Below, in pieces: positions 18,212-44,105 of a DNA stretch of 64,000 bases. The translations under genes were made by a program, and so were the position numbers. The DNA comes from Climacium dendroides (lineage: Eukaryota > Streptophyta > Bryopsida > Hypnales > Climaciaceae). The notes beneath the pieces were generated by a model, which saw nothing but the letters and a program-made list of their open reading frames with translations, made no database searches and was not told the origin of the DNA. The DNA lies in assembly GCA_950106755.1 (NCBI GenBank), contig OX467084.1, positions 28,585,213 to 28,649,212 of the forward strand, written 5' to 3'. Positions within the stretch are counted from its first letter, which is position 1. Each line of letters begins with the position of its first letter.

Positions 18212-18607
18212 ATGACTGAAATCAATGTTTTGCATGATGGTGATGGAGATGTTAGAGACTGTTTTAGGAACTTGCACCTTTCTAGTGTAATTCATTACAT
18301 GAACTACCTTCTATTATTCCTTTATGTCATGTCCATGTTAAAAAATATTTCAACCATGTTAGGAAATATTATAACTACATTAGGTGATTTGATGACCACC
18401 ATGGGTATAGTTATTGATGGCTTTGGAGTTAGTTTAAAGATTGTTTTGAGCCATTTGGCTAATTCACTTCAAAAATTTGTAACAAATTCATACTTTAAAA
18501 AAAAAAAAAAAAATTCAGCTCCTCTCTCCATTTCTCATGTTTGCTTATATATGGAAAAAAAATTAAAATTTTTCAAATATGTCAACAAGGCAAACCAGTC
18601 AATCTAC
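18212..18607 (+). repeat. Left half of a dispersed repeat split by the MULE
   Basis: This AT-rich stretch is diverged from, but collinear with, 52280-52830 (shared: ATGATGGTGAT, TTCATTAC, CATACTTT, A-run, CACTTC/CTCC, GGAGAAAAA/GGAAAAAAA). Its continuation appears at 35725 on the far side of the transposon. An open frame here (18212-18640) is part of the repeat and is not called as a gene. Confidence 0.65.
18598..18607. repeat. Left target site duplication of the MULE
   Basis: GTCAATCTAC, identical to 35715-35724. Ten bases fits the 9-11 bp duplications made by Mutator-like elements. Confidence 0.88.
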
Positions 18608-18648
18608 GGGGATTGCTATTATGTGAGCCTAGAGCGGTGAGTGGTGAG
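18608..18648 (+). repeat. Left terminal inverted repeat of the MULE
   Basis: Starts GGGGATTGCT; positions 19-41 contain GCCTAGAGCGGTGAG then TGGTGAG. It pairs with 35674-35714 on the other strand, and further AGTGAGCAG repeats follow inwards. Confidence 0.85.
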
Positions 18649-19068
18649 CAGTGAGCAGAAACAAATGAGTAATTTTGAAATATTTTTTCTGTGAAAAATG
18701 AATATACCAGTGCCTATGACTGTGAATTTTGACACATTCTTTAAGATGGAACCTATAACCGTGGGATGACCATCAGGGAATTTGTAGATCATTTTTATCC
18801 ATCTTAGCCATTGGACTATGTTGAATCCCTTGTCAGAGATGAAATTGAAGGAACAGATCTTGAAATGTTAGATAGTTTGGATACTCAAAACATTTAGAGA
18901 AATAATAAACATATATTAGGTACTAGACATGATACAATGGAGTAGGAAAAATATGTAAAACATATATAGTGTGCGTATATGAAAATCAAATCAAAGCCAA
19001 ATCACATCCAAGTCTAACCAAGTCTAACCCATACCAAATCCAAATAAAAACAAATGCAAATCATAAAA
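18649..19068. other. Left subterminal region of the MULE, downstream of the cargo gene
   Basis: AT-rich DNA between the left TIR and the stop codon of the minus-strand cargo gene; likely 3' UTR and terminator. Nothing else recognised. Confidence 0.4.
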
Positions 19069-22000
19069 CTAATTGTAGATGCTAGAGCTAATGTCTTCGT
19101 CTTCAGAACTACCTTCGTTGGCCTCTACATCTACATATTGCATAACACGCCTATCATATGAGCGCTTAGATCGCCGTTTAGGTAGAGATGTCGAAGCTGC
19201 CATCACCATCGCCACGTTTGCTGCATAGCAAGGAAGAAATAGGCTGGCTAATGGTGTAAACACCATAGGCATCGATGCAGCAGGAGATGAGGGTAATGCT
19301 AGAGCTCTACAAAGTAACTAAAGAATAAGAAACCAAGTTGAGACCATAAAATGTAAGAAATATAACAAATTCATAAGTAAGGAAAGAACTTACTCACAAG
19401 AAGGAACGCGGTTGAGTTTTAGCTTCTTCTCTGCACGATCTCCCATGCCTCGCCGCACAGCTTTCCTCTTCTGAACTACAGAAGCAGGAATCGAGGTGGG
19501 AATGAGGGGTTCCAAAAGAGCCTTGAAGATCTCCGGGTCTTCCTCAAAGGCCAAAATGTGCCTACCAAGAGATTGGCAAGCACGAATAGAAGCACCTGCC
19601 GTAGAAATTGACTGTTAAAACAAATATGATATGATTCTAAAATGCAAGATTAGATACTGAAAAAATTGTAGCAAAAAAAGAATGAAAGTAAGAAGTAACC
19701 TGTAGAGGCATTCCAATCCAATATAATATCTCCAACTTTGGAGAGAGCCTCAAATAGGACTTCACGAATTCCGGATTTTTCTCCCGAGGCCCTCACCATG
19801 GAACACTCCCGTGCATGAGTTGTGAGTCAGAACTCACAAAGTTGTAGAAGTAGTCATGGTGTTCAAAATTCTTGCCAATGGAGAATTTGGATTGGACATT
19901 GCCACTCCGTACGAATAATTGAACCCAAAAACGGGTGCACTGCCAAAAGAAAATGTTCACTAGTATATATAAGAAAATATAAATATAAAATATAAAATAT
20001 AAAATAAGAAAATGAAAAAAGAATTAAAGAAAAAAATTGAATGGATGATAACTAAAAGAAGAGATAAAGATGACAATTACCGTAGTAGATGGATTCCGTG
20101 GAGAAGCCAACGGAAGATCATTCATGCCCCACCAATCACACTCCAAGCGGAAGTTGTAAGTCTCCGCACACTCCTCCACATCGATAAGAACATCGCGGTC
20201 ATTTGGATGGAAAAGGAGAAGTGCTGCATCGTCATGCAAGTAAATCTCTGCAAATTCAAAGATGGTATCAACATACTTCTCCGGTCGAGCATTCCAAGGT
20301 GGAATGACCGTACTAGGTACAGAAATCCCAGGCACTAGCAAGTTCTCTGGGATGTCTGCAATGAGCAAATCAATCCTAGTGTACTTGCATTTGTCATTAG
20401 ACACATGACGGGACCTCCCTGTTCCAACCTGGAAAAGAAATTTGAATTAGAAAATAAATTGGAACATCAATGACACAATTAGGAATAAGAAGTAAAAAAA
20501 ATTGTAATATCAATGAACTAGAAAAATAGAAGAAGGAAAAAATTGTAGATCAAGGTTTAATAAAAGTACCTGGGAGATGAAGTCATGTAGTTGGGTCCAA
20601 AGCGGAGGAGGACCATTTGGATCTCCTAAAGAATCCATGATGGAATGCACCGAGGCATTTTGAATGAATGACTTAGAAGAGGTAGCAAGAAGTGGTGCAG
20701 AAGACCTAGACACAGTAGGCACGCGTTGCATGCGATTGTGCACTACGTTTCGACTGGTCTCCATTTAACTCGACCTTGTTGCATGTGAGTCCATAATAGG
20801 GGGAGAGTAACCAGAAACATCAACAGGTACAGAGATATCTGAAGAAGAAGGCAAAGGAACACCATTGGTAGCAGCCACTTTTGCAAGTGCCTCTGCCACA
20901 ACCCTCTCGACAGCTGCAGCTTACTCCTCTGCATCTCTAATTAACTTCTCCTTGTTCGCCTTCTCCTTGTCAGCCTTCCTTAAGCGCTTCCTCTTTGAGG
21001 AGGTTCCATCTTGTGTTGCAGCATGAGGTGACTGTGAGAGGTCCAAGAATACAACCTCATCCTCAGTATCTGGAACTGAAGGTGGAGATATAGTGCAAAC
21101 AATGCTATTGCGGAGCTCCACCTCTTCATCCGGAATGAAGTTCACAGGGCACTCCAAATACCAACCACCACCATGGAGATGAGCAGTAGAAAACTTCTTC
21201 AACTGCGTGGGCATGAAGATGCAAAGATCTGAAGATGGCTGAATCCATGCTCCAAAGAATGGAGGGCAATTGTTATCTCCAAGTGCATTCTTAGGCATGA
21301 GCTCTCTCATTACATACCTACAACAGAAAAACAGAAGAAAATGAGAATAGAAGTAAATAATCAAAGAAGAAAGTGAAGCAATTGCAAATGTGATACAAAA
21401 CATAAGAAGTGTGTAGTGTATTGAGAATGAGTAAAATTCCCAACAAATGATGAAACAAAACACAAACAAAACACAAACCTGTAAAGTAGCCGCTTTATAG
21501 CAAGGTCTGCTGATGGGACATTGTGAAGCCTGATACTCTTTAAAAAAGGAGGCTTGATGTTTGGATGAAGTAATGGTAAGAATGCTTTCTCCCACAACAT
21601 GATACGCCACCTCTCAACATAATCTAAGGGCTTCAATAATCCAGGAGAGGCCTCCCAATTCACCAAAAGCTCAACCTCCACAAAGTTCTTCGAAATGTAC
21701 AATAAACATTTCCTCGAGCTACATAGTGACAAAGAAAGAGAAAATTAGATATAGAGTGGCATCGGTAAAAGTAAAGAGCCAAATAGAATGACAACTATGT
21801 ATTTAAATGAAAAGTGGAGGAAATACCTGAGCCCAGAATGTAGCTCGGTTGAGCCAAGTATCCAAGATGCTCTCCTTGACATCACCAACTGGGAAGCGAA
21901 AAGAGGCTCGAAGAATGGAGTCGGAGTTCCACCAGTGGAGCCAGCGCGCCTTGAAGCGTGGTTCAACTGCTGCAGTTGCTACCTTTTGCAACTTTTCAAT

Positions 22001-23699
22001 TGTCATTTCAGTCTTCTTGAAGAGGCTGAAATGAGAATTGATCTGTTTATGAAAGACAACTAGAATTAATAAAACCTGGATAAAGAAAACCATGAATGCG
22101 ATGAAATTGAAGAAAAGAAAGATATGAGATAATAATGAATTTACCTCATCAAAGAAAGCCTCGCCATTCTTGGGGTTTGCAACGGCGAGATACTTTACAA
22201 AGTCCTTAGCTTTTATGGCTTTCACCATAGTGTCTGTAGCCAATGCCATAGCATCCCAAACTCCCTCGGCTGATATCTTCTCAATTGGTGTCGTTCTGTG
22301 ATACTCAGTGGCCGCATCATCGGCAGCACGAGATATATCTTGCTGAAAAAATGAAAATAAAATAAAATTTAGAACACAATGACAATAGCAAGAGATGAGA
22401 AATGTATTTTAAGACGATATAGTAAGAATAATGAATTAATAGAATTACTTACTCGGTAAAGAAAAAAGATGAACAAGTCAATTGTGAGAGGAAACCAGGT
22501 GGGACGTGACTTCTTCACTTTGAGACATGTATTGAACTCCTCCTCGGTAAGCAAGTCCTTAAAATCATCAAGGTTAAGTCCACCATAGTACCGAATTCGT
22601 TGCAACTTAGCAGTTAAACTAGTCTTGACGTGATTGTATTGAGTAGACCTGAAAAATAGAGTTGTTAGAGTGAACTAAACAACATATGAAATAGAGTATA
22701 AGTGAAATAAAGTCTAAATGAAAGAAATGTGCTCACCAATTGACATCGTGCATGCAATTGAGCAACGATGTTATACGTCCTTTGGGGTCGAGAACAATGC
22801 AAAACACGGAATAGTGCCATCGAAGATCATCGACATGTTGAGCATTGATGTGGCGCCACCAAGTTGTGAACCTATGATTGCCATCCCACACAAAAAACAT
22901 CTTCCCTCGGAATGCAGCATAGTCGGGATTAGACTGAAGTTGATTTTCAAAGCGCTCATTGACATCACGCCAATGAGGGTCCCAAGAAGCTATGCGCTCC
23001 TCAGTGACATCCGTAGATGACATATGGTCAACAAAAATGGATATGTACATGGCACGGTCACCGTCGATGTAGCCCCGCTCAAATCGTTTTTCCAAGGTAG
23101 CGACATCAACCTCTTGAATTGGTCGGACTCTTGGAAGAGGACTCATCCTACAGAGGGGGACATAGAATCGACCTAATGGGATGCGCATACTATCGAGAAC
23201 CTTCACAAAATCAGACTTTTGGTGAAGCCTCCTTGCTTGCTCTCCTGCCTTTGAGTCTTGCAACCCGATTGGACATTTCGGAATAGTAGAATCCTCAGAA
23301 TTAGAAAGTGACAAATCCTAGCATGCAATTAATGGCAATGCAAATTATGAGAAATAAAAAACTTGGACAAGGCACATACTTCATTAAAATCTATGTACAA
23401 TAAAGATTTAATACCCCAAAAAAATGTATGCCCAAAGATTATGCCACATTCCCAAGAGTTAAGAATGAAGAGAATTACATAAATGACATCATGAACTCTG
23501 AGTTGCTCTTCAGATTGAAGACCTTCATGCTCAAGTTGCGAATGCGCGACAACCTATACAAAATTAGAAAACATTTGAAATTTGAGAAACAAGAAGCAAC
23601 ATGCGGTTTAGGTTTTGAAGAATACAAATTGAAGAGTGTAGGGGTTTGGGATCTTAGTCTTATTGTAGTGGAGCTAGCCATTCTACGTGCAAACCAAAG

Positions 23700-24130
23700 G
23701 TGGACAGGCCGAGGGTGCATGGAATCAGGGTTGGGAGCACTCGGCGCCGAATGCTTGCTGGACAACAAGCGGGTGCAAACAGCTCGAAGGTGCAAACAGT
23801 TGGAATAGCAAGCGGGTACAGGCGCAGGTCGACACGGACAATAGGCGGGCGCTACAAGCGCAGTGGACAACAGGCAGGCGCTGGGAGCATTCGGCGCCGA
23901 ATGCTTGTTGGGACAGGTCGAGCGGTCGAGGGCGCAACGGATAGCAGGCAGGCGCTGGGAGCATTGGGCGCCGAATGGACAGGTCGAGTGGTCGAGGGCG
24001 TAAGCGGACAGCAGATAGGCGCTGGGAGCATTCGGCGCAAGTCGAGCGGGCTAGGAGCATGCGGCGCCGAAGTTGCTGGGACAGGGACAAGTCGCCGAAG
24101 TTCGCCGGGACAGGTTGAGGGTTGAGGGCA
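23700..24130. repeat. GC-rich minisatellite with palindrome cores, in intron 3
   Basis: A GC-rich island in AT-rich surroundings. Words such as GGCGCTGGGAGCAT, TCGAGCGG and GCGCCGAATGCTTG recur at irregular ~60-75 bp spacing. The core TTCGGCGCCGAA is perfect at 23890-23901 and slightly altered at ~23740, 23964, 24030 and 24060. The open frames crossing it arise from the lack of AT-rich stops. It lies inside the large intron of the cargo gene. Confidence 0.7.
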
Positions 24131-24253
24131 AAACCGTAGAGAAGATGAATGGCGGTTTACCTAAAAGAAAGTTCGGTTTTCATTCCCCAAATTCCCCGAG
24201 CTCCGCGGGTGAAGCCGCGAGAAGTAGGAGGTTTTTTCAACCTAGTTCCCTCG

Positions 24254-24258
24254 GTCAC
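24254..24258. repeat. Left target duplication of solo LTR 1 (GTCAC)
   Basis: GTCAC, identical to 28117-28121 on the other side of the LTR. Confidence 0.88.
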
Positions 24259-27200
24259 TGTGAGTGCTCATTTGGTCACTCATGATTCGGAATTGTTTTT
24301 TTTGGATTTTATAAAGTTTTGAGTGTAGTTTTATATACCAAAAGCCCAAAAAAGAGTGAATAACCAAAACGGATATGTCACATACCAATATGACCATTGG
24401 TCCTAATTGAGGCATTTCTTGTTATTTGTAACCAAATTCTGCATGTAGATAGGGTAGAAACCTAGAAATTGTACAAAATAACCATGTTTAGTAGAAATTG
24501 CCCAACTTGTCTAAACCTGCCTTTTAGTGACAGATCCTAACCAAATTAGTCCAAGGGAACTATGTAAAAACCTTAGTATAGATTCTCAAAGAGAGGTTTC
24601 AGTTTTCCCATTCCATTGGCAAAATAGTAGAAACTCCAATTGTTAGCTTGTAGGTGAAGAAAACTCAAGACGAATCATAGGAGGGCATCTACAACTTAAG
24701 TACGGTAGTTCGAAGTAGAAATCATGCCAGGAGTCAACGGAGCAATCGGCTCACCAAGATTCCCTTTTATTTGGAAGATTCCTTTTTTTTATCGGAAGTT
24801 AAAGGAAATAGCAGGATTTGATTCTCCCTCCTTAGATGTGCAAAACGGGAATATGAGTTTGCACATCCCTTGTGGAACTCCATGAGAGGTTCCATGAAAA
24901 TTCTCGATTTTTTCTAATCTTTAAAAGATCTTTTTCCGGGTAGTCAACTATTGGAAGTAATGATGGGAAATTCCTAGAAATTACCCAAGCAGCGGTAAAA
25001 TCTCACTAAAAATCAGGTTAGTTTCTTTTATGTTAATAATAAGCTCCAATAAGTTTCATAGCATTCTGATAGTCAGAAGATGCAAAACCATCAAGATCCT
25101 CCAAAATTGGCAAATTTAAAGATTAATCGTGGAGTTGACCGGTGTACGGGGAGCATATGGAATTGGATTAAGGTTAAAGCGGGGTCTTTTCTTACTCCCT
25201 TACATCTACTAAAGAGCCTAGGCTAGTTACTTTTCTTAGAAAAGTTGATCTCCCAAAGTTGAGTTTTTATCCAATTTTGGTCTTCTAGTTAGCGCTAGAA
25301 ATCTTTGTGATTTTGACGTAGGAAAAAGGGGAGGGGGTTTTCTTAAACTAAAAATGGCCTTCTGAAGCCAATGGCGCAATCCGTTTATGATTTGGAGCAT
25401 TTCTCCAAAAGTTAGGAATTTGGACCAGCGTAGAAGTGAAAATTGGGCAAATTAGATGAAAATCTTAATTGATAAGATTACCTTGTAGGAAAAGAGAGGA
25501 GGGGGGTGCCCTTGGGAGAGTATATAAGGGCACCCATTTTCCTCTCAAAACACCCCTTAGGTTCATTTTGAACTGCCTTGTTTTCATTTGGGTCCATTTA
25601 GTTGGATTTTGGCCATTTAGGCCACGTTGCCAAATTTCCTTGTTTTTGGAGCATTTCAAGCTACTTTGTTGTTGTTTTTGGAGCTCTCTTGAAGGACTTG
25701 GGGTCCCTTCAAGCTTAGCTATTTTCTTGTGGTGTTTCTTGTGGGTTATTTGAAGCTTGGGTGATGTTTTGTGGAACTCTTATATTTTGTTGCCGTCTTG
25801 TAAGTGTTTTGAACTAACTTTGTACTAATACTAGAGGTTCTTCCCTTGTGATTGGCGATGCCGCTTAGGGAAGTCCTTTAGCTTGCTATTCCTCTAACTT
25901 GTACTAATTGTAGTAGTGTTTTGTACCATTAACACTCACTTGTTGTCTTAGTGGTTTTTGTGTGTTATTTGACCTCTAATTGTCCCTAGGCAATAAAGCT
26001 CTTGAAAAATTTGGTTAGAATTTCCTCCGTATTTAAAAATACGGCGAAGCTTTGACTTTGTGTATTTAGAGTCGGGAGTCTTTTTAGTGATTTTCGTAAA
26101 ACCACAGCGAAGCTTTGACTTTGATTAGAAGGAAGTTATAGAATTTTTAGTGAATTCCCAAGAGCCGGCGAAGCTTTGACTTTGGAAAGAAATAGAGTTT
26201 TTTTAAAATTTTAGAGTGTTTAGAAATACGGCAAAGCTTTGCAAGAAATTCTCACCAAGCTTAGTTTTCGGAAAAAATGCACTTTGGGAACCCCAAGCTT
26301 AGTATCCAAAATTAGCACCATAGTTGTTGTGTTAACCTCCAAAAATTAGTGTTCCATTTTTAATAGTCACCAAGAAGTAGTACCAAAATTTCATTAGGAA
26401 AAAGAGTCCAAAAAACCCTCCAACATCCCCCGAACCGAACTGTCCAGAGAAGAAATTGAACTGTCAAGAACCGATTCACAAAGGGCCACACAGGAAAGGG
26501 GTCTGGCTTATCTCGGGTTGCCACATGGCAGTGCCACCTCATCGATGACTGGGACGGATCCAAGCAACCCGAGGGAAACACGTGGCGTAGTGGTAACTCC
26601 CGGTCTTGTGTTCCTGCCTGATCGAGTGTTCTGGTGACTTCCTGCTGATCGTGTGTTCTGGGCTCCCGGTCTGTCTTTCGGTGGCTCTCTGGTCTATGCA
26701 CTGGACTGTTGGACTGCCGCGGCCTTTGGCCAAAAATTCAGATTTTCCATTGAGAGGAAACTCAAATAAAAGAGAAAAATAGATCAAAGGACAAGCTAAA
26801 TTTTATATGTAGGAAGAGGCTTTTAAAAAAATAGAGAGAGAGAGATGAAGTAGAATAGACGGGAGGATAGAAATTAGAAATAAAATTAGAAGAGAGAAAT
26901 TAGAAGTAGTATCAATTGCAACTCTTCACTTTACAAATACAACCATAAGAAAAGAATAGAATAGAACTTAGAACCTCTCATAGACTCCTCAACTCTCTTC
27001 AAAACTCAATAGAATGGAATGCAAATGAAGAAGGAGAAGAGTCCAATTAGAAGTTGAAGAGAAAATTAGAAGTCGGATTAGGTGGAAATCCGTGGGAGTC
27101 ATTTTGAACCAATAGAACTTAGATAAAATAATAATTGACTTGAAGAGTTGATAGAAGATCAATTATTGTTTATAGGCCAAGTCAACCATATGAATACAAT

Positions 27201-28116
27201 AATGGAGGGGGAATAGTGTAGAAGGGAAAGAAGTGATAGTAAAAGAAAAGAAATAGTACAAGCCTTATCTTTTGTATTTTCAGCCCTACTTTAAGCTGTG
27301 AGAAAAATTACCAAACGACTTCAACTAATGGCAAATGATGGGGATCTCAATGGAGTGATGGATAACCTATCGGATTATGTCTCCATCGAGGTATGAACTC
27401 AACTTCTCCTATTTCTTTTGATGTCCAAAGTTTAGCATTTATACCATTAAACCGAACTTCAAATATGATTCAGAGGGTCTAGAGTAGGTTTTAGTCAAAG
27501 TTTATCATTTTATATTTGTATATTAGGTCTAGAGGATTCCAAAAACATATAACACCTAGAAAACCGAGTTAAAACGACCAAGATATGGAAGGATGAAGTT
27601 TAGGGGTCAAAATGGATGAAAGTTAGATAAATCATCCAAAGTCAACCATATTAGAAAGTCAAATAATAAATAGAGTTCAGAGCCCAAAAATCAAATATCA
27701 AGTAATATTATAAGGTATATTAGTAGAAATCAATGGATGAAGTTTGATGAACCAATTAGCGGTCCAATTTCATCCTTCCATAACTATTGTTAGAAGGCTC
27801 GGATGAGGTCGAGTTTTATATTTTTAGAAATGGCATAACATGTTCTATCACCTAAAAATGATAAATCTAGACTGAATTCATTTTGAATAAAAACCACATT
27901 GGCTTAGTTAGTTGAGATAAAAGGGTAAAACTTATAGTTATTTAGAATTTCTTGTTGTTTTGTTTATTTTTCACATGTAAGAGTTAGAAAAGATCCATTG
28001 CTTGGAAGGCACAATGGATTGACGCTAGGCACCCTTAGGACAAAACTTACAAAACAATACTAAGAACCTGGTTGTGCAACGCTAGTTTACCATGGGTGGG
28101 TAAAAAAGTGCTCACA
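24259..28116 (+). mobile_element. Giant solo LTR (3858 bp) nested in the MULE
   Basis: Starts TGTGAGTGCTC, ends AGTGCTCACA (TG...CA with inverted ends), flanked by the 5-bp duplication GTCAC. No second copy lies next to it and no gag/pol reading frame is present, so it fits a solo LTR left by recombination. A TATA box at 25521 marks a likely start of transcription; an AATAAAGC at ~25992 may serve as poly(A) signal. Parts unique to this copy: four copies of CGAAGCTTTGACTTTG-like sequence at 26040-26240 and a GC-rich patch at 26480-26740. Collinear homology to 55223-58966 defines the family. It sits inside intron 3 of the cargo gene, in the opposite sense. Confidence 0.85.
25521..25528 (+). promoter_or_regulatory. 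TATA box of solo LTR 1
   Basis: TATATAAG in the same place as TATATAAA at 56486 in the second LTR copy. Both are followed by a CT-rich stretch containing CTCTCAAA, typical of the U3/R border of an LTR promoter. Confidence 0.6.
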
Positions 28117-28726
28117 GTCACCCATCCTTGAGCTATTCCTCTCTACCTTTGCTTAACTCCAATGTACTTAGCACCCTCCTACCACGGCTTCTAAACCTTG
28201 GAGATGTTGAAGACTTGAAAATTTAGGACTTTGTAAGATGAATGCAAGAATGACTTGTACTACTTGGTGTCACAACTTATTTGCTCAATCTTCATTCAAT
28301 CACTACTTTTAGAGTATTAATGCAAACAAGTTGAAATTTGAAATGAAGGTACATATGACTACTCCAAACATAATTCATATTTTTCTTATGAAATAAAATA
28401 ATAATTACAAGTGTGACATATATAAATTAAAAAGAACCCTCGGTCATATGTTACACTTGTAATTTTTGGAGTTGGAAGTACTATGAATTTGGAGCTAAAA
28501 TTTTGGGAGGATGCTACACCACTTGACCTAAGGATTTCTAAAAACGATAAAAACTCCTTGTTGTAGGCATCTACAAAGTATGAAATCAAACTAGACTATT
28601 ATCTCATAAAAAAAAATTGTATTTTTGAGACTTCTTTCCCATGGAATTCTTAGCAAAGGCCATTTCTTATTGTAATTTTTACATTATAAAAAGAAATCGA
28701 AATAAAATTCCACCAAGTTACCTAGG

Positions 28727-29690
28727 GAGTTCGGCACCAAAGACTCATTGCAAGGCTTTTGTGAACCCTTTCTCAAACTAGTGGGTGCATCCATAGGTCA
28801 TTGGGTGGACAAGAGTTTAAAAAACAAGATGGCAACGGACTTGCCCTAAAGAAGGTTCGGTGCCAAAGCCTCATTTTAGGGGCTCATTTGAGCCTTCTCC
28901 TATAGCTGGTGGGTACAATTTGACGTCAAAGGTAGGGGACGGGCCTTCAAATTCATACTTAGGACATGCCAAATGAGGTAGTTTTCTTAATTTTATACTT
29001 GATACCCCTAAATTTGTGCTTAAGCCTCTTATTTTGAGAAAAAAGAAGGTCAACATGTCGTTGATTGACGTTAGGCGGATTTCAAGTGAGCGAGAGGCTA
29101 ATCGGATGGGCATGGATGGGTGGGTGGACGGGCGGCCTGTCAAGCAGCTAGACAATCCTAGGCTAGCTCCAAAGAGGGTTCGGCGCCGAAGCCTCATCTA
29201 GAGGGCCCATTTGAGCCCTGTCCTACAACTAGTGGGTACAACCTTACGTCAACGGGGGCAGACAAGAGTTCAAAACAACATGGCATCGGGCCCGCTTCAA
29301 AGAGGGTTTGGCGCCGAATCCTCATTTGGGGGGCCCATTTGAGCCCTTTCTTGTAACTGGTGGGTACAACCTAACGTCAAGGGCGGGAGACGAGAATTCA
29401 AAAAAAGATGGCAACGAGCCAGCCTCAAAGAGGGTTCGGCACCGAAGCCTCATTTTGGAGGCTTAGTTGAGCCTTCTCCTAGAGTTGGTGGATACAACCT
29501 AACGTCAAGGGGGGAGACAACAGTTCGAAACAAGATGGCAACGGGCCCGCCCCAAAGAGGGTTCGGCACCGAAACTTCATTGCGAGGGCTCAAAAATCAA
29601 ATAGTGAGCCTTGGTCCAAACACTCTAGTTTTATTGTGGACATTTGGCACATGTGAGCCGGCCTCCACTGCTTGTGGGTGCTCTTTGATG
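28727..29690. repeat. ~127-bp tandem repeat with palindrome TTCGGCGCCGAA
   Basis: Units begin near 28731, 28859, 29181, 29309, 29438 and 29563, spaced 125-129 bp except one gap of 322 bp that holds extra sequence (~28925-29165). Shared order: CAAAGAGGGTTCGGCGCCGAAGC-like start (seen here in pieces), CTCATTT, GGGCCCATTTGAGCC, GGTGGGTACAA, ACGTCAA, AGATGGCAACGG. The palindrome is perfect at 29179-29190 and altered mostly at CpG positions elsewhere. It lies in intron 2-3 space of the cargo gene, upstream of the nested LTR. Confidence 0.8.
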
Positions 29691-30098
29691 TTGCGGAGGG
29701 GAGGTAAAGCCCTATTCCGACTACGTGATTCATTCAATTTAGAAGAGGACCTTTGAGGCCTGTAGAGAGATCAAAAAATAGATGAAAGTGCAATGATGGA
29801 GTGACTTACTGCATCTAAAGCCTTTGAAGGTGTGCTTTGTGCACAATCGTCCAGATCTTCATTGCCTTGGTTGTTCTGTTGTAGCTCGTAGTCATGATTA
29901 TTCCTATCTTGATCGGTCTCTTGAAACTGCTCTCCACTTGTCTCCTCTATTTGCGCATACTCTGACACTAATGTTGCCTTCTAAAACATTGATCTAAGTA
30001 TCGTCATTTTCGAGCTTCTAGTAACAAAACCCTATACCCCAATGACTTGGTATTAAACATATCAATGTTAATTCACCCTTATATTATACTTGCGACAG

Positions 30099-30191
30099 GA
30101 ACTCGAGCAAACCATATTGCAATTGACGTCCAAGGGAGAGGATATGGCCGCAAGATGCAAAGAGTGCTTGAACGTTCTAGTGCATGCGGAG
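30099..30191 (+). other. Possible captured or cryptic exon
   Basis: A 93-bp open segment (31 codons) preceded by CAG and followed by GTAAAT. Its + strand reading contains EQTILQLTSKGEDMAARCK and KECLNVLVHAE, which looks protein-like and is GC-richer than its surroundings. It sits inside intron 1 of the minus-strand cargo gene. It could be a captured host fragment of the Pack-MULE kind or chance; the reverse frame is also open. Confidence 0.25.
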
Positions 30192-30624
30192 GTAAATGAG
30201 CGCTTGGACCAAAATCCTCATCTAGTTACTATTAATTCCACAATCAACATCAATATGCTCAAAACCTAAAGAATGATTTGCAATAGACCACATTATTTTG
30301 TAGGACATCAAAGATATTCTTCAGCCAATGGATACTTACTTTGCTTTGTTCTTCACTTGACAACTCTTCTTCAGTCTCGCATTCAGACATGAATGGTTGA
30401 TTGTCTTGCGATCCCGCAAATCATGATATCTCGCCTTCCAATGGAAGAGTCTCAACAACTTCTTTCAACAAAGCACCTTGATACGAAAGTGTTCTAGTTG
30501 TACTAGTAAGGTCTATGCCTGAACGTTGAAGTTGTTGCCTAAACATTCTAGATTTGGCTAGTTGCTTTCTAGATGAATAACGAAACTCACTCCTCCGCTT
30601 CTTCTTCCTATCTCCCTTCTGCAT

Positions 30625-31619
30625 TTGGCTCAATAGAACATCATTAAGCTCTCCACTATACTATCTTCTATTGAGTTGGAAAATGTGGCAATGCCCTTAC
30701 TACAAACGTTTCTCAATAACAAACAATTGAATTTGAAATACTCAATCACGGACTCTTTCTCCGTATATCAATCTTTGTTAATACTACTAATCATCACGCA
30801 CATCGAATCTCAATAGTAACTGAAGTGACATTTTCTACATCTTTATGCTCTCGATGGCCAACTGGTAGGTACAACCTTGTAAGCTTGATCTAGCGGCCAC
30901 GACAATATTTCCAACAACCCTAAACACGCTCATTCAACGCTCTACTTCAAGTATGAAGTAAATTATGACTATTTGAATACTCCAATTAGATGTCTATACT
31001 TTTCAAGATTGTTTATTTTATTTAGATTGTCATATCTTTTATAAATAGAAAGGCTATTCTAGCAATCTAACTGTCACCGTCACTAAAATCTAGTAGGTCC
31101 CTATTACACTTACACTCGCCGCCAGTTCGTTGTCCTTGTAAATTTGAAATCCACCATAAATAAAAGTAATTCAAACTAACATCTACATTATGGTTCATTG
31201 TAGTTCTCCGATGAAAGGCCTTTTTTCAAACATGTATTCTCTAATAATGATAAATCTATATAATTGAACCAGCATCTATTGATACTATGGATTAGACTTC
31301 ATTCACAATTCTATTGTATAATTATTTCATAACGCCAACACCCTTTATTATTATACTTACAGAATTACAAGCAACCCACCTATCTGACACGCGCCGGCAA
31401 CTTTTCAAAAATATATCCTTTTCATCAATACATGACTCTCGTCATTTTTTCTAATTAAAACGTCTCTTAATCACCCTCTTTATTAATTCTATCTGTCTAT
31501 GTCTTCATACAGTGATGTTTGCATAACCTCTTGCATCAAAATATATACCTGCAGAACTCTTGGATTTAAATTCTATTCACAATTCCCATGTTGTCCGTGT
31601 CTTTCTTTTCTCCATTGCA
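30625..31619. promoter_or_regulatory. Inter-gene region between the two divergent MULE genes
   Basis: About 1 kb of AT-rich DNA between the first recognised codon of the minus-strand cargo gene and the ATG of the plus-strand transposase. By position it should hold both promoters. No specific box can be assigned. A further 5' coding exon of the cargo gene could lie here, as its frame stays open upstream of the ATG at 30624. Confidence 0.4.
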
Positions 31620-34600
31620 ATGGCTAATTCTCAAAATCCTCCCATGGTGCTAATTCATGCTGATGGCCAAGGAGTTCTTATTTCTTTTCAAGTAGGAGCT
31701 GATGGAAAGTGCACAGTCAGTGCTCTTCGTTTACATCTTCGTTTTCAATTTCTAGAAGGATCTATGCATGTTGATGAGGAGGTCTTTGATGTTGATTCCG
31801 GAGAACTTCTTCACACTATAGGTCATGAGTCCTCTATGAATGATCAAGGTCAGTGTTGGATTCTGAAGTCGGGGACGTACCGAGTGTATGGATTGAAAGA
31901 TCCTCTTCAAGGTGCATGCACTAAGATCCTCACCCCTAGGGTGTCATCTACATGCACCCTGCAGACACCTATGCTCCGAAAGGTTAAGATTGAGCCTTGC
32001 GAACGTATCGTCCATCTCTTGAGTGATGATTCTGAAGATGCGCTCCCCAGTAGATTGCCGTCTTCTACTATTCCAATCCCCAATCCTACTGTAATATGTC
32101 ACCCTTCGCATGATACAAATTCATCGCAAGGCAGTCATCCAAGTACTTCTAAGCCTCCGATTCCGCCACGGATTGATGACTATGTGAGCGTTGTTCATTG
32201 TCTCAAAAAATTAGTTGCAAGGAAAAGGTCGAAGTCCATCTTGTCTAAGGTAGACTTCACCAAAATAAAAACCAACAAAGTGGAATTCTTTCCCCCTAGA
32301 TTTGATGGCGACGTGATGTTTGAGTTCCCCCCGCCGGGGAAATATGCATCACAGTCACAAGAAAAGCTCCTTTATGGCATGGACAAACGCCATGATGGCC
32401 ATGCTTGGACTCGCACCATCACCTCCAATATCAAGAATGACATGGGTTTAACATTTAGAATGTCTTCGTGCTTAGGTCATTTGCAATGTACCAACGCAGC
32501 TTGCGATTATTTATCTCGTGTGCACCGGTCCTCCCAAGCTAACGAAACCGAATGGGATGGAATCTCCTCGTTCACCTTTGAAGTTGGATCTAACCCTCCA
32601 AAAGGCTCAACTGTCGTGTGTAAAATCTGCAAGGTTTCTTCGTCATGCTTAGATGGGTGCTTGGCTAAGATTTATTATGTTCTTGGTCATGGAAACATGA
32701 CTCATGCATGTGTGCACCTCAGAATCCATTGTCATCCTATGAAGATTGGCGAAGACAGAGATGTTGCTGAGAAGATAAAGAGCCTCATTGGTGAACAAGT
32801 AGAGAAGACTCCAACAGCAACTAATTCTGCCATTGTCCTTGAAGCCAGCAAGGAATTCCTTGGTGAATTGCTTCTTTCTGCAGATGGAGCAATGCAGAAG
32901 GAACCTACTCTCGATGAGCTCATACCGGTGTTTGATAAGTTCAAACACATGTCTTCCCCGAGTATTCGGAATCAAGTCACGACGTTTCGGTACTTGAGAC
33001 GTTTTGGAGTCATGGACAGCATCACCAAACTTAGAGGGTCTAGCTATTGGGCATTTGTCTAGGAGAACAAATTCCCTGGCCAAGGGTCTAAGTCCGACAA
33101 GGTCTTTGTTTTCAAGATGTCTGAGATCGGGCCAGGAAGTGGAGTTGATCTCGTGACAAGAATGCAACTGGGTGGAGATTTACAGAATGCATGGATGATG
33201 TTCGACCATGTCAAGCGTGTAAAGGGCTGGACTTCCATGGCCTGCCATGTTTATGATGCTACTTATTGTCGGATAATGACCATTGCAGTGTGTGATATGC
33301 AGTTGGAAGATGTTGCCGCTCAAATCATCTTCTGGAAGAACTTGAATGCTATTGTGGCCAAATACAACTTTTCTAACGTACAATTCAAGGGCTTCATGGC
33401 AGACAATGCGCAATCAAATTGGAATGCAATTCGTATTGTGTATGGTAGCGGTGATGCTTCAATTCCTATGGAAGACTAAGAACGTACTTGTTTGTTCCAT
33501 TGGACCCAGTCATTGGAGAAACATACAAAGGCTGACATTCGGGCGGACCTGCAATGACAACATCGTCAATTGTGCATGCAATACAAGAATGCCAAGTCGT
33601 TAGCAGAGGCTGAGGAGCGGTACCTTGCTATCAGATCATGGTGGCTTTCCTCCGGGGCAATGACTGATGAAGGAGTCGTTCGTCTTGACCTATGGCTTGC
33701 TTTCTGGCACTTCCGCTATCGCCAATGGGGTGGTTTCATGGATTTGGTGAGTTTACACTTTGCTCCAGGCCTTTTTGCTTTTAATTTTCTGTAAAATTGT
33801 AACCTCACTCTAAATTATACTACCATTCATTTGACATCACAGGCCCTTTCTGAGGATGAGCTTGCTGAAATGCCCTCATGCAATTTAGTGGAGACTGTAC
33901 ACAACAAGTGGCTTCAACAGAGCGGTAAACGAGGTAATGACTTGTATGTGGCAACTGTCGATGATTACGTACGTGCTTTCATGCAAATGGTTGCCTACTA
34001 CCAGTATTTGAATGGTGAGAGACCGGGTACTGGACCTGGAAAAGAAGAATTGTTGCTTCGAGTCGCCCAACGAACCGCCCAACGTTTTGGCAACCTGAAA
34101 TTGCTTCATCAAGCGCTTCGAAACATACCTGGAGCTGCCGGTTTCTGCACTCGCGAGCCTCATCTTCAAGGTGAGGAAGTATTTCTCTCCCTCAAGCGCA
34201 AAGCAAATCTTCCTCCTGGATCGGAGTTCGACTCTCATAGACCTGACAAGATTAGCATCTCTCGCCCTCGGGTACAAACGCGAGCAGGAGGTGCAATATT
34301 TTATGATCTCACTTCAGAGGGTGACGCACAGCAAGAAGTAACTGAAGACCTGCATAATAATCCGGTTCAACTAGAAACACCTACTACAGTTCCAACCATG
34401 GAGCATGTGAAGGCTGTACAAGAAACAATATGCAATGAGCATGAATGGCACATTGCGCGACTTCCAAAGATGTTAGCGAAGGCTTGCTTCGCTCAACAGG
34501 CCATCACCAAGAAGAAATGTGTGGCACGAATTGTACAGGATGGAAAAAGTACGGATGCATCAACTTACAACGGCATCATGCACAACAATAGGAAGAATAA

Positions 34601-35294
34601 ACAAGAGCGCATGCAGTTCTTCTTCTGCAACGACGACATTGAGAGGTGCGTGAAGGGTACTCGTCGTAAGTGGGTGGTTTCCAAACCTGCAGTTCCAGAA
34701 GTTTGGCCTGTCAAGATTGGCACCAATCTCACACAGAAGGAGATTCTAGACTTGGAGAACGTTGGTTTTCGATTGGCACCACGTCTGGAGCTCTCTCCAA
34801 GGAAGCTATTCAGGGAAGAGGGGTCATTGGTGGACCTGTCAGAGTATCCTACCTCGGAGTTCTCTAACGACTTTCCAAAGCGCAGATTTGGGAAGAACAT
34901 CAGGCGGAATCCAAAGGCACCTTCAACGAAGCACGCCAATTCCTGTGCATCTGCTCTTACTGTCATTGGGCAGATTTTAAAGGTTTCTATGGTACCAATT
35001 CCTGCCCTGGGTTGCATCATCACCTTTGAGTCCCGAAATGGTCTCAAAATTTCGCAATATTTAATTACGATTGGCCAATTTCCCAGTTGTTCATGCCCCT
35101 TCTTCAAAGACATGTCAGACAAATCATTGGGAAAGCATGGACAATGGACAAATTGTAAGCATCTGTACTACATATTTCATGTAGTTTGTGGATTGGACAA
35201 TGAGATAGATGTTTTTATGCACACTCCTAGTTTCAGCTTCAATGAAATTAAGCGTGTTATTCAGATGGTGCTACTTAAGCAACCAGCAACTTAG
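31620..35294 (+). pseudogene. MULE transposase with SWIM zinc finger, nonsense-mutated
   Basis: DDE-type transposase of the Mutator-like superfamily, ~1190 codons in two exons (31620-33746 and 33843-35294; intron GTGAGT...ACAG). The N-terminal ~350 residues are variable; around 300-390 lies a Cys/His-rich DNA-binding-like region (CTNAACDYL, CKICKV, HLRIHCHP). The MULE core follows: VYDATYCRIMTIAVCDMQ with the first Asp, FKGFMADNAQSNWNAIR with the second, and AEAEERYLAIRSWW as candidate Glu. Near the C-terminus is a SWIM finger, CSCPFF...NCKHLYYIF (CxCx(n)CxH). Start at ATGGCT 31620. The frame is interrupted by TAG at 33060, TAA at 33477 and TGA at 33555, with no frameshift, so decay is by point mutation only. 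The protein would have acted in the nucleus on the element's TIRs. Confidence 0.85.
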
Positions 35295-35673
35295 AAATGC
35301 TATTGAGCCTAAGGGCTACATTGTACAATTCTCTTTTTAGATTGAATGAAACAGTGGTGAGACTAAAAGGGCCACCACGAAGTTGTTGTTGTACATTTTG
35401 ACTACTCATTGAATCATCATTGACATTGAAAATTTCAAAGGTGTGTACATTTTTGTTCACATTTTGCTGCCATCCTACAGTAATAGTGGTCAAAAGTACG
35501 TGAATAATTTCATTCCTACGATCATAGGAGCACCCTTATTCAACGGTAATAGGTCCAAATAATTATTAAATTTGGACCTAAACCTTTTTTATTTCTATTT
35601 TTGATAAATTCCCACTAAATGTTCATTATTTTATTCTTTTTTCTACTCTATGCTCTCCATTCACCGCTCTAGG
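35295..35673. other. Right subterminal region of the MULE
   Basis: 3' UTR of the transposase, then AT-rich DNA leading into the right TIR. The GCTCACCGCTCACCGCTCT block near 35660 is the mirror of the GGTGAG repeats at the left end. Confidence 0.45.
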
Positions 35674-35714
35674 CTCACCGCTCACCGCTCTAGGCACGCA
35701 AACTAGCTTCGTCC
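35674..35714 (-). repeat. Right terminal inverted repeat of the MULE
   Basis: On the minus strand it reads GGACGAAGCT at the tip, then GCCTAGAGCGGTGAG and CGGTGAG, matching the left TIR at equal distances. Confidence 0.85.
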
Positions 35715-35724
35715 GTCAATCTAC
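35715..35724. repeat. Right target site duplication of the MULE
   Basis: GTCAATCTAC, identical to 18598-18607. Confidence 0.88.
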
Positions 35725-41592: not shown

Positions 41593-44105
41593 TTAGAAAT
41601 CCCCTTGCCTGCCAACCTTGACAATAAATTTCCAAGAATTTATAGCTTCCATGTAAGGAAAATTTTCTAGAGGAAAATATTGTTGGCCAAACATTCGATT
41701 AACAAGGGGCAAGTGCTTATCTAATTTATTTCTATGGTAGGATTGAAGGACTTTCAAAGATGAAAAACATCTCTCATCTTCTACAGAACCTAGGACCAGG
41801 CAACATCCAATTTTAGCAACTTTAAAGTATTCAGAAATGAGCTTACAGAGGTGGTAGTATTGTGCAAGTTTGCGCCACAATTTAATCACCAAATTCACAT
41901 TCAACGACGGGCTGCAAGCTACCTTGTAGTTGGCTTGTATGGTTACCTTGGAAAGTCCCTGTTGCAAATCCAAATTAGATGTTGAGAGCAATTTTGGGGT
42001 GGTATGAGGCTTGTTGCCTTCATACAAGGACTCGTCCCTGTTCACTGATTTGGTGTCATTGTAAAAGCTTTTGAGTATAGACAACTGGTGCACAAAGCTT
42101 GCATCAACCCCTTTTTGTGTCTAATATTGGGGATATATTATCCCAATAGCATCGAGTAGTTCCTGTTGAGAAAAACATCGGTCAAATTCAGCACACAATG
42201 TTGAAGCAATATCTACAAACAACCTAGAGGACAAAGTCACTTACCACTGCAAAGAAAATCAATCACAAAAAGCATTTAGTGAGAAACTAGACCCTAAATC
42301 CAAGCTAGTAGTCTTTGAGCTTTAGCTTTGTCTTGCAATCTGAGCATACAGAAAGGAGAAATTGGAAAGATTTAGAAGCAAAAAAAAATGGAAAATAAAA
42401 TGCGCCTTCCACTCAAGGTAGAGAAAACAAAAAATGGAACAAGGCATACTTGAAAATTGGTACTCAATAGAATCTTGGATGCGGTTGAAGTCCTGTTGGG
42501 TGACAAAAATGTGCTCACTGATTTGGTAGTCATGGCATTGGGCGTAGAAGGTAGTCACTTTTAGATCAAGGTACAAGTGACAAATGTCACTGTCTCCAAG
42601 GAGCTCTTTCCACTGCAAGGGAAGTTCTTTGCATTTCAAAGACACCAAATTAGTATAGCGTGGAAAGTCCTCCTTATTGAAAGCAATAGCTCCATCTATG
42701 AACATGCGAGCCAGCTCCTATTGACACACTTTTACAGCTTGAAGAAAGTCACAAATAAATATGTTGCACGCTTGGGAGAGCTTGATTAAGCAATGAATTG
42801 CATTTGCAAGTGGAATGAAGCAACACAAAGATAAAAGCACTTCAATATTAGATAAAAGGTCAAAATTGTCACTGGCCCTAGCCATGGATTTGTGCCCAAG
42901 TCCGATCTTACCATCATGTCAACTCCCACTTTTATAAGAAGTGTTGTATACTCTTGTGAAATTTGTTGCATTGGACTCTACATGGAGATCCATCTTGTCC
43001 CTACATTGCAAACCATTTTCAATCCCTTAGTTTCTATGAGATTTGCGAGTTACTACAACTCAATGTGTTTTCTATTATTGTAACAAAAATAAGAGTATAC
43101 CGATTGGAAAAGGCCTTCAAATCTAGAAATGAACGGATATTTCGACAAAGTTTCCACAACCAAGTTCATGTGGTGATTGACACAACTAACTCTTAGTGTA
43201 AAAGGAGCCTACTTGTCTTGAATTTGAGCAGTTACACCAAATTTGGCACCTTGAAAAGTATTAAGACCATTAGCACCAAAACAAGCAAGTTTCGTTGCGA
43301 TCTCCTCGTGACTCCTCGTGACTGAGACCACCCTCATTGATCAAGGCATGCATTATTACATTAGTAAGGTGGTCGAGAGTGTCATTCTCAAACATGCATG
43401 ACAAATGCAAGAGGTGAGGCATTCGTTCCCAGTTGTCAATAATATAGATATGAACGACGATCTAGGAGGAATTATCCATCGTAGTGACATCATCGGCACT
43501 CAAGGAAATAATAGTAGTTGACTACAGAAGACATTCTAGTTTTATTAGAATGCATTCATGAATGTGTTTGTTCATTCTTCAACTAGTAGATTCCAACCAA
43601 TGTTTACTGGGCAAATTTTTCAATTTCAAATGCTTGAGTAAGTATTGCTCCCTTTCAAAATTGCACATCGGACGACTATGAGTAAGAAGGAAAAATAGGG
43701 TGGAGAATTGTACTCCTTTCTTCTTGAACTCACTTTCGATACTGGTAGTCAACTGATCTGCTACACTGTATTCTAGCTTACGGCTTGCCTACAACTTGCA
43801 GTGCTTGGCATGCTTGCAGTTGAGTTTGAAAAAAGTATCGCCTTTTTTCAAATGCAGCAATGTCATATCATCCTCCGTACATATACGCTTGCCTTTGTGT
43901 TTCTCTAAATTATCAAGCACTGATATTATGACCTTCCTCCTTCACGTAATAGTCGTACAGCTTTGGCAGATCACTCCAATTAGATTTCTTAAACCATTGA
44001 ACACGCCTTTCTGCCTAGACAAATTTACATGCTCACACCTCTTGTCACCGCCGCTTGAATGACAACACATCAAGCTTCCTTCTCTTTCGCGCATTGGAAT
44101 CAAGA
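41593..44105 (-). pseudogene. hAT-superfamily transposase remnant
   Basis: Minus-strand pieces in changing frames and with several stops. 5' part (~44100-43790): Cys/His- and Lys-rich segments (NCKHAKHCKL). Middle (~43450-43080): ETCLFWC-like and CVNHHMNLVVETLSKYP, a typical stretch of the hAT transposases with a TTF/ZMYM-like N-terminus. 42705-42470: a conserved-looking helical block. 3' part (42093-41593): the hAT dimerisation region, with SVEDERCFSSLKVLQSYHRN and LDKHLPLVNRMF. Terminal inverted repeats and a target duplication were not found. It is clearly not translatable as one protein. Exact exon limits are uncertain. Confidence 0.7.

What the first reader, a model, noticed from the sequence alone, without database searches (positions are those of the whole stretch)
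18608..35714. A Mutator-like transposon that carries a ParB-like/DNA methyltransferase gene
Seen: inverted ends aligned without gap over ~41 bp, a perfect 10-bp duplication (GTCAATCTAC), a MULE transposase near one end and, divergently, a 13-exon gene near the other. Known: MULEs can carry host gene fragments, and some carry a ULP1-type protease. Inference: a ParB-methyltransferase companion gene in a plant MULE would be a new type of autonomous element; the extra protein could mark or bind element DNA, helping mobility or escape from silencing. I know of no description of this arrangement.
Basis: partly seen in the sequence, partly recalled or inferred. Interest (0 to 1): 0.95.

Follow-up and report, generated by a model that had tools for sequence, protein, structure and literature searches.

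The report
Jumping gene with ParB-methylase-like partner gene
A large jumping gene in this genome travels with a second gene for a ParB-like, methylase-like protein, and the relatives examined carry repeated DNA palindromes of their own that this protein may recognise, which would let the element mark its own DNA.

Summary
Window 18608-35714 is a broken copy of a repeated DNA transposon (about 13.3 kb without a later 3.86-kb insert), between the only two GTCAATCTAC of the window. Five other copies read to both ends have their own 10-bp duplications. The ParB/methylase-like gene belongs to the unit: 29 of 32 family-1 transposase places have it divergently within 30 kb. Five families (ParB 35-51% identical) pair it with the same kind of transposase, four head to head, one head to tail. 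The transposase resembles ISCth4 (IS256); the accessory N-domain has the ParB/Srx fold; its C-domain resembles N6/N4 methylases, but motif IV is altered in all six sequences aligned. New here: all five families carry 14-bp dyads of one form, NNYCGK-N2-MCGRNN, each with its own letters; a contig from another source, not used to define the form, has three 5' of its ParB exon. Best reading: the protein binds its own element's dyads and shields or marks it, as VANC does in VANDAL MULEs. ParB-methylase accessory genes are already described in algal transposons (PMC12477816), so this is a new variant. Binding and activity are untested; the planned dyad test on fresh loci could not be run.

The parts
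18598..18607 (.). target-site duplication, left copy (GTCAATCTAC)
   Evidence: read directly; only two occurrences in the window
18608..18656 (+). left terminal inverted repeat
   Evidence: 35 left ends of 88% identity or more in the genome, itself included
19069..23553 (-). ParB/methylase-like accessory gene, 11 exons found: 23479-23553, 22737-23317, 22453-22648, 22145-22342, 21827-22042, 21479-21718, 20570-21317, 20081-20428, 19700-19939, 19394-19595, 19069-19306; this copy is broken
   Evidence: exon borders; exons in other copies
22737..23317 (-). exon with the ParB/Srx-fold domain (DGNHR motif)
   Evidence: AlphaFold2 model pLDDT 85; Foldseek/VIA rows nearly all ParB, Noc, KorB, PadC, Srx, SerK, SbnI
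19394..20428 (-). exons with the N6/N4-methylase-like domain; altered motif IV (ADIPEN) in 20081-20428, motif I (DWNASTG) across 19700-19939/19394-19595
   Evidence: PF01555 E 9.2e-6 on copy L014, just under the curated cutoff; alignment
23708..24073 (.). repeat array with dyads of the ATTCGGCGCCGAAT type at 23739, 23889 (exact), 23963 and 24059 (up to two mismatches)
24259..28116 (.). later insertion, TG...CA ends, 5-bp duplication GTCAC (solo-LTR-like); not part of the transposon
28722..29592 (.). second repeat array (about 128-bp units) with decayed TTCGGCGCCGAA-type dyads, e.g. at 29178 and 29306
30421..30660 (-). small basic ORF (YSSRKQL motif), weakly conserved; possible 5' exon of the accessory gene or a third gene
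   Evidence: alignment of four families, 21-41% identity to the window row, two invariant columns
31620..33746 (+). transposase exon 1 (WRKY/GCM-like zinc domain, first two catalytic D residues, CxxH); broken by stops/frameshift in this copy
   Evidence: start codon and donor read from the DNA printed
33846..35294 (+). transposase exon 2 (probable third catalytic acid in NLVETVHNKW, SWIM-like CxC...CxxH end); start approximate
   Evidence: motif names recalled
35666..35714 (-). right terminal inverted repeat
35715..35724 (.). target-site duplication, right copy

Best explanation
This is a broken copy of a two-gene, Mutator/IS256-type transposon whose second gene is a lasting accessory gene. 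The accessory protein has an N-terminal ParB/sulfiredoxin-fold domain and a C-terminal methylase-like domain with an altered active-site motif. Shown: the unit moves as a whole (ends plus private 10-bp duplications, family 1), and the two genes occur together in five divergent families. Shown as sequence pattern: each of the five families carries at least two dyads NNYCGK-N2-MCGRNN, with its own letters, mostly in the non-coding DNA 5' of the ParB exon. Inferred: the accessory protein, probably as a dimer, binds the dyads of its own family, coats or marks the element and keeps it open or helps the transposase; family-private dyads keep it from acting on other families. This would work like VANC proteins and their tandem-repeat motifs in VANDAL MULEs, with a ParB-type binder in place of VANC. 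The methylase-like domain more likely binds cofactor or DNA, or has changed chemistry, than acts as a standard DPPY-type methylase.
For: Unit: (28 of 35 left ends pair with a right end; 24 of these 28 span 11.9-17.5 kb). Linkage: (29 of 32, 19 of 103 and 7 of 15 transposase places at >=85%, 55-66% and <55% identity have a divergent ParB hit within 30 kb; 0 of 150 have one in any other orientation, within the scored lists). Families. Selection: pooled pN/pS 0.53 over 16 copies. Folds; PF01555 in three of four assembled methylase domains. Dyads; 0 in 46,873 bases of window flanks, 3 in L038 where 1,000 shuffles give 0 or 1. VANC precedent: PMC5735166, passages read.
Against: No binding, expression or methylation data. 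Dyads within one array are tandem copies, so the independent units are five families plus L038, and the form was drawn up after seeing the five. The planned test on six fresh loci could not be run. In family 4 only two dyads exist, not in a tandem array, one of them in an intron 3' of the ParB exon, and by one measure no more than shuffles reach. The looser core CGKNNMCG exceeds the shuffle maximum in six of eight sequences, not in L035 and L036. Three of the 17 fetched family-1 copies that include the array side have no exact dyad (L017, L021, L027) and the window copy has one. One family has the two genes head to tail. 84 of 103 mid-identity transposases have no ParB in the scored list; two of these were fetched and both have one, too distant to be listed; the other 82 were not looked at.
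Confidence: 0.6

Rival explanations
1. The accessory protein is an active N6-adenine or N4-cytosine methylase that marks the element's own DNA (the reading proposed for the Ectocarpus gene). Not exclusive of dyad binding.
For: PF01555 matches at E 9.2e-6, 3.3e-4 and 1.9e-5 in families 1 and 4 and L038; an acidic residue after the second strand (LEED/FEED/LESD) and a D...TG loop are kept in the rows that cover them; PMC12477816 makes this proposal.
Against: Motif IV reads DIPE, DIPE, DCQE, EYPD, DVPE, DVPE in six sequences instead of D/N-P-P-Y/F/W (the canonical motif is recalled); the three Pfam scores lie under the curated cutoff.
Confidence: 0.2
2. The accessory protein is a transposition co-factor (nicking or assembly with the transposase), with no epigenetic role.
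For: Some ParB/Srx domains are NTP-dependent nucleases or nickases (PMC5512222, passages read); head-to-head layout in four families.
Against: The dyads lie in internal DNA, not at the element ends.
Confidence: 0.25
3. A host or bacterial gene captured once by chance and carried as a passenger (Pack-MULE style).
For: MULEs are known to carry captured gene pieces (PMC13317346, passages).
Against: The same gene sits with the same kind of transposase in five families with 35-51% ParB identity; pN/pS 0.53; 966 candidate places.
Confidence: 0.03
4. The dyads are operators or hairpin DNA read by the transposase or a host factor and are unrelated to the accessory protein.
For: They sit in repeats near the gene start; the transposase has its own WRKY/GCM-like DNA-binding domain.
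Against: L038 shows them directly 5' of a ParB-methylase gene on a short contig whose ORF list shows no transposase; this is weak, as the contig is only 4.7 kb.
Confidence: 0.2

Closest known systems
ParB-like + DNA methyltransferase accessory gene of Sola1-1_Ec32, Ectocarpus (PMC12477816), and the green/red algal cases it cites
   Same: ParB-like domain plus N4/N6 methylase-like domain, about 1,100 aa, opposite strand to the transposase of a large DNA transposon (passages)
   Different: Transposase there is Sola1; here it is IS256/Mutator-like with 10-bp duplications. Family-specific dyads and an altered motif IV are not in the passages read. The cited Iyer 2011 and Petroll 2025 papers were not read. 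The two proteins were not compared by sequence.
VANDAL MULEs with VANC anti-silencing proteins (Arabidopsis)
   Same: MULE-type element with an accessory DNA-binding protein; family-specific short motifs in tandem repeats in introns and other non-coding DNA (passages of PMC5735166)
   Different: The VANC21 motif is a 9-base non-palindrome; here 14-bp dyads and a ParB/Srx-fold protein; no anti-silencing shown here
MULEs with ULP1 protease genes (Kaonashi and relatives)
   Same: MULE with a companion gene (PMC13317346, passages)
   Different: Protease, not ParB/methylase
Retrotransposons with DNA methylases (Symbiodinium LINE/DIRS Dnmt, Klebsormidium, Dam-like in DIRS)
   Same: Selfish element encodes a DNA-methylase-type protein (PMC5890265, passages)
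   Different: Retrotransposons; C5 or Dam-type enzymes; no ParB domain or dyads in the passages read
Bacterial and phage ParB-methylase fusions
   Same: Same two domains in one protein (PMC5512222, passages)
   Different: Prokaryotic; here intron-rich and tied to a transposase

Membership tests
Mutator-like (MULE) DNA transposons | terminal inverted repeats | tested here: met
   81-86% over 42 nt; 35 left and 34 right ends in the genome
Mutator-like (MULE) DNA transposons | 8-11 bp target-site duplication | tested here: met
   10 bp in the window and in 5 of 5 other copies read to both ends, one with 1 mismatch; a sixth, L010, was not fetched to its right end; only family 1 tested
Mutator-like (MULE) DNA transposons | IS256/MULE-type RNase H-fold DDE transposase | tested here: met
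Mutator-like (MULE) DNA transposons | recognised by a curated MULE profile | tested here: inconclusive
   no Pfam family at E<=10 for the 1200-aa query
Mutator-like (MULE) DNA transposons | falls inside the MULE clade of a transposase tree | not tested
   no tree was built
ParB/Srx superfamily | ParB/sulfiredoxin fold | tested here: met
Canonical CTP-clamp ParB | GERR-type C-motif | tested here: not met
   D145 G146 N147 invariant, H148 R149 nearly so, in 89 sequences; closer to the GxHR of Srx/SerK (motif names recalled)
Canonical CTP-clamp ParB | helix-turn-helix parS-binding domain | not tested
   the middle exons were not modelled
N6/N4 DNA methylases (PF01555) | profile match above curated cutoff | tested here: not met
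   26.2, 25.1 and 21.1 bits against 26.7; E 9.2e-6, 1.9e-5, 3.3e-4; a fourth assembly lacking the motif-I exon had no hit
N6/N4 DNA methylases (PF01555) | motif IV (D/N/S)PP(Y/F/W) | tested here: not met
   six of six sequences differ (canonical motif recalled)
VANDAL/VANC-type self-recognition | family-specific motifs in tandem repeats of the element's non-coding DNA | tested here: met
   families 1, 2, 3, 5; family 4 has two dyads and no tandem array
VANDAL/VANC-type self-recognition | accessory protein binds the motifs and causes hypomethylation | not testable with these tools
   needs binding assay and methylome

The most novel reading that the evidence does not exclude
A eukaryotic, transposon-borne analogue of ParB-parS: many transposon families in several organisms each carry a ParB-fold protein with a repurposed methylase-like tail and a private set of palindromic sites of one shared geometry (6-bp arms, 2-bp spacer, YCGK core), so that each family reads only its own DNA; the protein spreads from or bridges these sites and shields the element from silencing or guides its transposase.
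Probability: 0.35. Interest if true: 0.92.

Novelty: new variant of a known kind. Interest (0 to 1): 0.74.

Why it matters
How transposons escape silencing is known in detail for few systems, VANC in VANDAL MULEs being a main plant case. Here is a candidate for a second such system built from different parts, with 966 candidate places in one genome and a concrete, cheap prediction: each family's protein should bind its own 14-bp dyad and not its neighbour's. It might also explain what the ParB-methylase accessory genes noted in algal transposons are for, and why their methylase-like domain can lose its catalytic motif and still be kept.

Tried and rejected
Passenger gene capture (Pack-MULE): rejected, the gene recurs in five families. 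The gene having its own mobile boundaries: not seen, the one foreign insert found (24259-28116) lies outside it. Divergent layout as universal: rejected, L039/L040 are head to tail. My early reading that L022 holds a divergent relative behind the family-1 end (note) was wrong: L022 is a family-2 element inserted into a family-1 end fragment. Searches that led nowhere: the full accessory protein against 5.8 billion proteins gave none, probably because exon-sized entries fell outside the length limit; the exon profile then gave 332. No relative in viral contigs. The ParB profile against sequences of solved structures gave two rows, E 0.0049 to a ribosomal protein and 0.62, which I take as chance. 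Papers: nothing relevant, one phage paper, searches list PMC12477816; PMC6446971 on Mutator evolution holds none of six terms looked for, 'methyltransferase' and 'accessory' among them.

Full report
OBSERVATION. GTCAATCTAC occurs only twice in 64,000 bases, exactly outside the two ends. The window lies at G000:C3:28585213-28649212 of a 412.6-Mb genome. The left 193 bp has 37 matches there and the right 205 bp 34. After dropping two partial rows, 28 of 35 left ends pair with a right end within 60 kb on the same strand; 24 of the 28 span 11.9-17.5 kb, one is 5.5 kb and three exceed 30 kb and are doubtful. Of 33 ParB-exon places at 72% identity or more (three second fragments dropped), 29 lie within 7 kb behind a left end (offsets; the script's own count of 31 includes two at 11.9 and 48.7 kb that I do not accept).

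OTHER COPIES. I fetched 20 left-end stretches of 10 kb of the 34 other left ends. 16 of 20 align with both the accessory-gene side and the start of the far side, mostly at 92-97% identity; 19 of 20 hold at least some family-1 exons (the other, L022, holds a family-2 element). Six copies were followed further: five reached the right end and each has its own 10-bp duplication, four exact and one with one mismatch; the sixth, L010, was not fetched far enough. None of the 16 loci that span the junction has the 3,858-bp block 24259-28116, which has TG...CA ends and a 5-bp duplication.

HOW WIDE. The ParB exon has 966 candidate places in the genome, of which 150 were scored and all listed rows are significant. 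A transposase stretch has 953, 150 scored. Taking 147 ParB places (three second fragments dropped) and 150 transposase places, a divergent ParB within 30 kb was found for 29 of 32 transposases at 85% identity or more (26 of them within 10 kb), 19 of 103 at 55-66% and 7 of 15 below 55%; none of 150 had one in any other orientation. The ParB list is cut at 150, so misses are not absences: two of the 84 mid-identity transposases without a listed ParB were fetched (upstream side) and both have one, at 36% identity and on the same strand as the transposase (in L039 the transposase itself starts about 1 kb beyond the fetched stretch, by the place). Families read: 1 window; 2 L022/L037; 3 L035; 4 L036; 5 L039/L040. 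In family 4 the transposase rests on a 97-residue match (E 8e-17) with one stop at the edge of the stretch. Left ends of families 1-3 look alike by eye, GGGGAT(T)GCTA or GGAATGCTG followed by TGTGAGC; right ends and duplications of families 2-5 were not read. A small basic ORF with a YSSR(R/K)QL motif lies between the genes in families 1-4 but is only weakly conserved. ParB-exon profile hits in the public protein set: 332 (hosts not given). L038, a 4.7-kb contig filed under a cyanobacterial MAG, holds the gene in pieces in different frames matching the exons here; I take it as eukaryotic DNA in that bin (inference; splice borders not checked).

DYADS. Each family has palindromes with a 2-bp spacer: ATTCGG/CCGAAT, AGCCGT/ACGGCT, CCTCGT/ACGAGG, CCTCGG/CCGAGG and TCTCGG/CCGAGA. 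In families 1, 2, 3 and 5 they lie in repeats of about 45-140 bp 5' of the ParB exon, family 5 having two more between the two genes; family 4 has two copies and no tandem array, one 5' of the ParB exon and one in an intron 3' of it. Counting CG-holding perfect 6+2+6 dyads, seven of eight element sequences exceed the maximum of 40 shuffles; the window copy, with one exact dyad, does not. Counting copies within two mismatches of the best palindrome, five of six exceed the maximum of 30 shuffles; family 4 equals it. The looser core CGKNNMCG exceeds the shuffle maximum in six of eight, not in L035 and L036. On DNA already held and not used to draw up the form: 0 in 46,873 bases of window flanks, 0 in the insert, 3 in L038 at 24, 130 and 346, 5' of its ParB exon at 552-1184; L038 was not one of the six loci named in the test. 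1,000 dinucleotide shuffles of L038 gave 0 (993 times) or 1 (7 times), and no other spacer from 0 to 10 gave any. The three are tandem copies, so they count as one independent case. Among family-1 copies the number varies from 0 to 23; three of the 17 fetched copies that include the array side have none.

MECHANISM. The pattern is that of VANC: passages of PMC5735166 say VANC21 binds YAGTATTAY, that the motif is arrayed at high density in non-coding regions with tandem repeats, including introns of VANC21, and that motif and protein evolve together. I propose the same logic with a ParB-type protein. The binding, the direction of effect (anti-silencing, transposase help or self-marking) and any methylation are inference.

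NOVELTY. PMC12477816 (passages) already names ParB-like plus methyltransferase proteins as a possible class of transposon accessory proteins able to bind and modify their own transposon. New here, as far as the paper searches show (open-licence library only): the pairing with an IS256/Mutator-like transposase, its spread over five families in one genome, the altered motif IV, and the family-private dyads of common geometry.

Noticed in passing
window 24259-28116: 3,858-bp insertion with TG...CA ends and 5-bp duplication GTCAC, no internal LTR pair: looks like a solo LTR nested in the transposon.
   Followed up: partly
L022:301-507: A family-2 element has inserted into a family-1 left-end fragment: nesting of two ParB-methylase transposons.
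   Followed up: yes
L022:6854-7189 and L035:6912-7247: A 339-bp stretch 5' of the ParB exon is 77% identical at DNA level between families 2 and 3, whose ParB exons are only about 39% identical; unexplained conserved DNA.
   Followed up: no
G000:C38:16206574-16780428: Seven transposase places at 60% identity within 0.6 Mb, all with a 620-aa frame and one TAG: looks like a recent local segmental repeat.
   Followed up: no
L038 (CADCWO010000058.1): Contig filed under a Synechococcales MAG carries a transposon gene split into exon-like pieces: likely binning contamination.
   Followed up: partly
L026: This copy has 23 exact dyads of the common form, an expanded array.
   Followed up: no
window 41593-42120 (-): ORF with RCFSSLKVLQSYHRNKLDKHL looks like the C-terminal part of a hAT transposase (by eye, recalled).
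   Followed up: no
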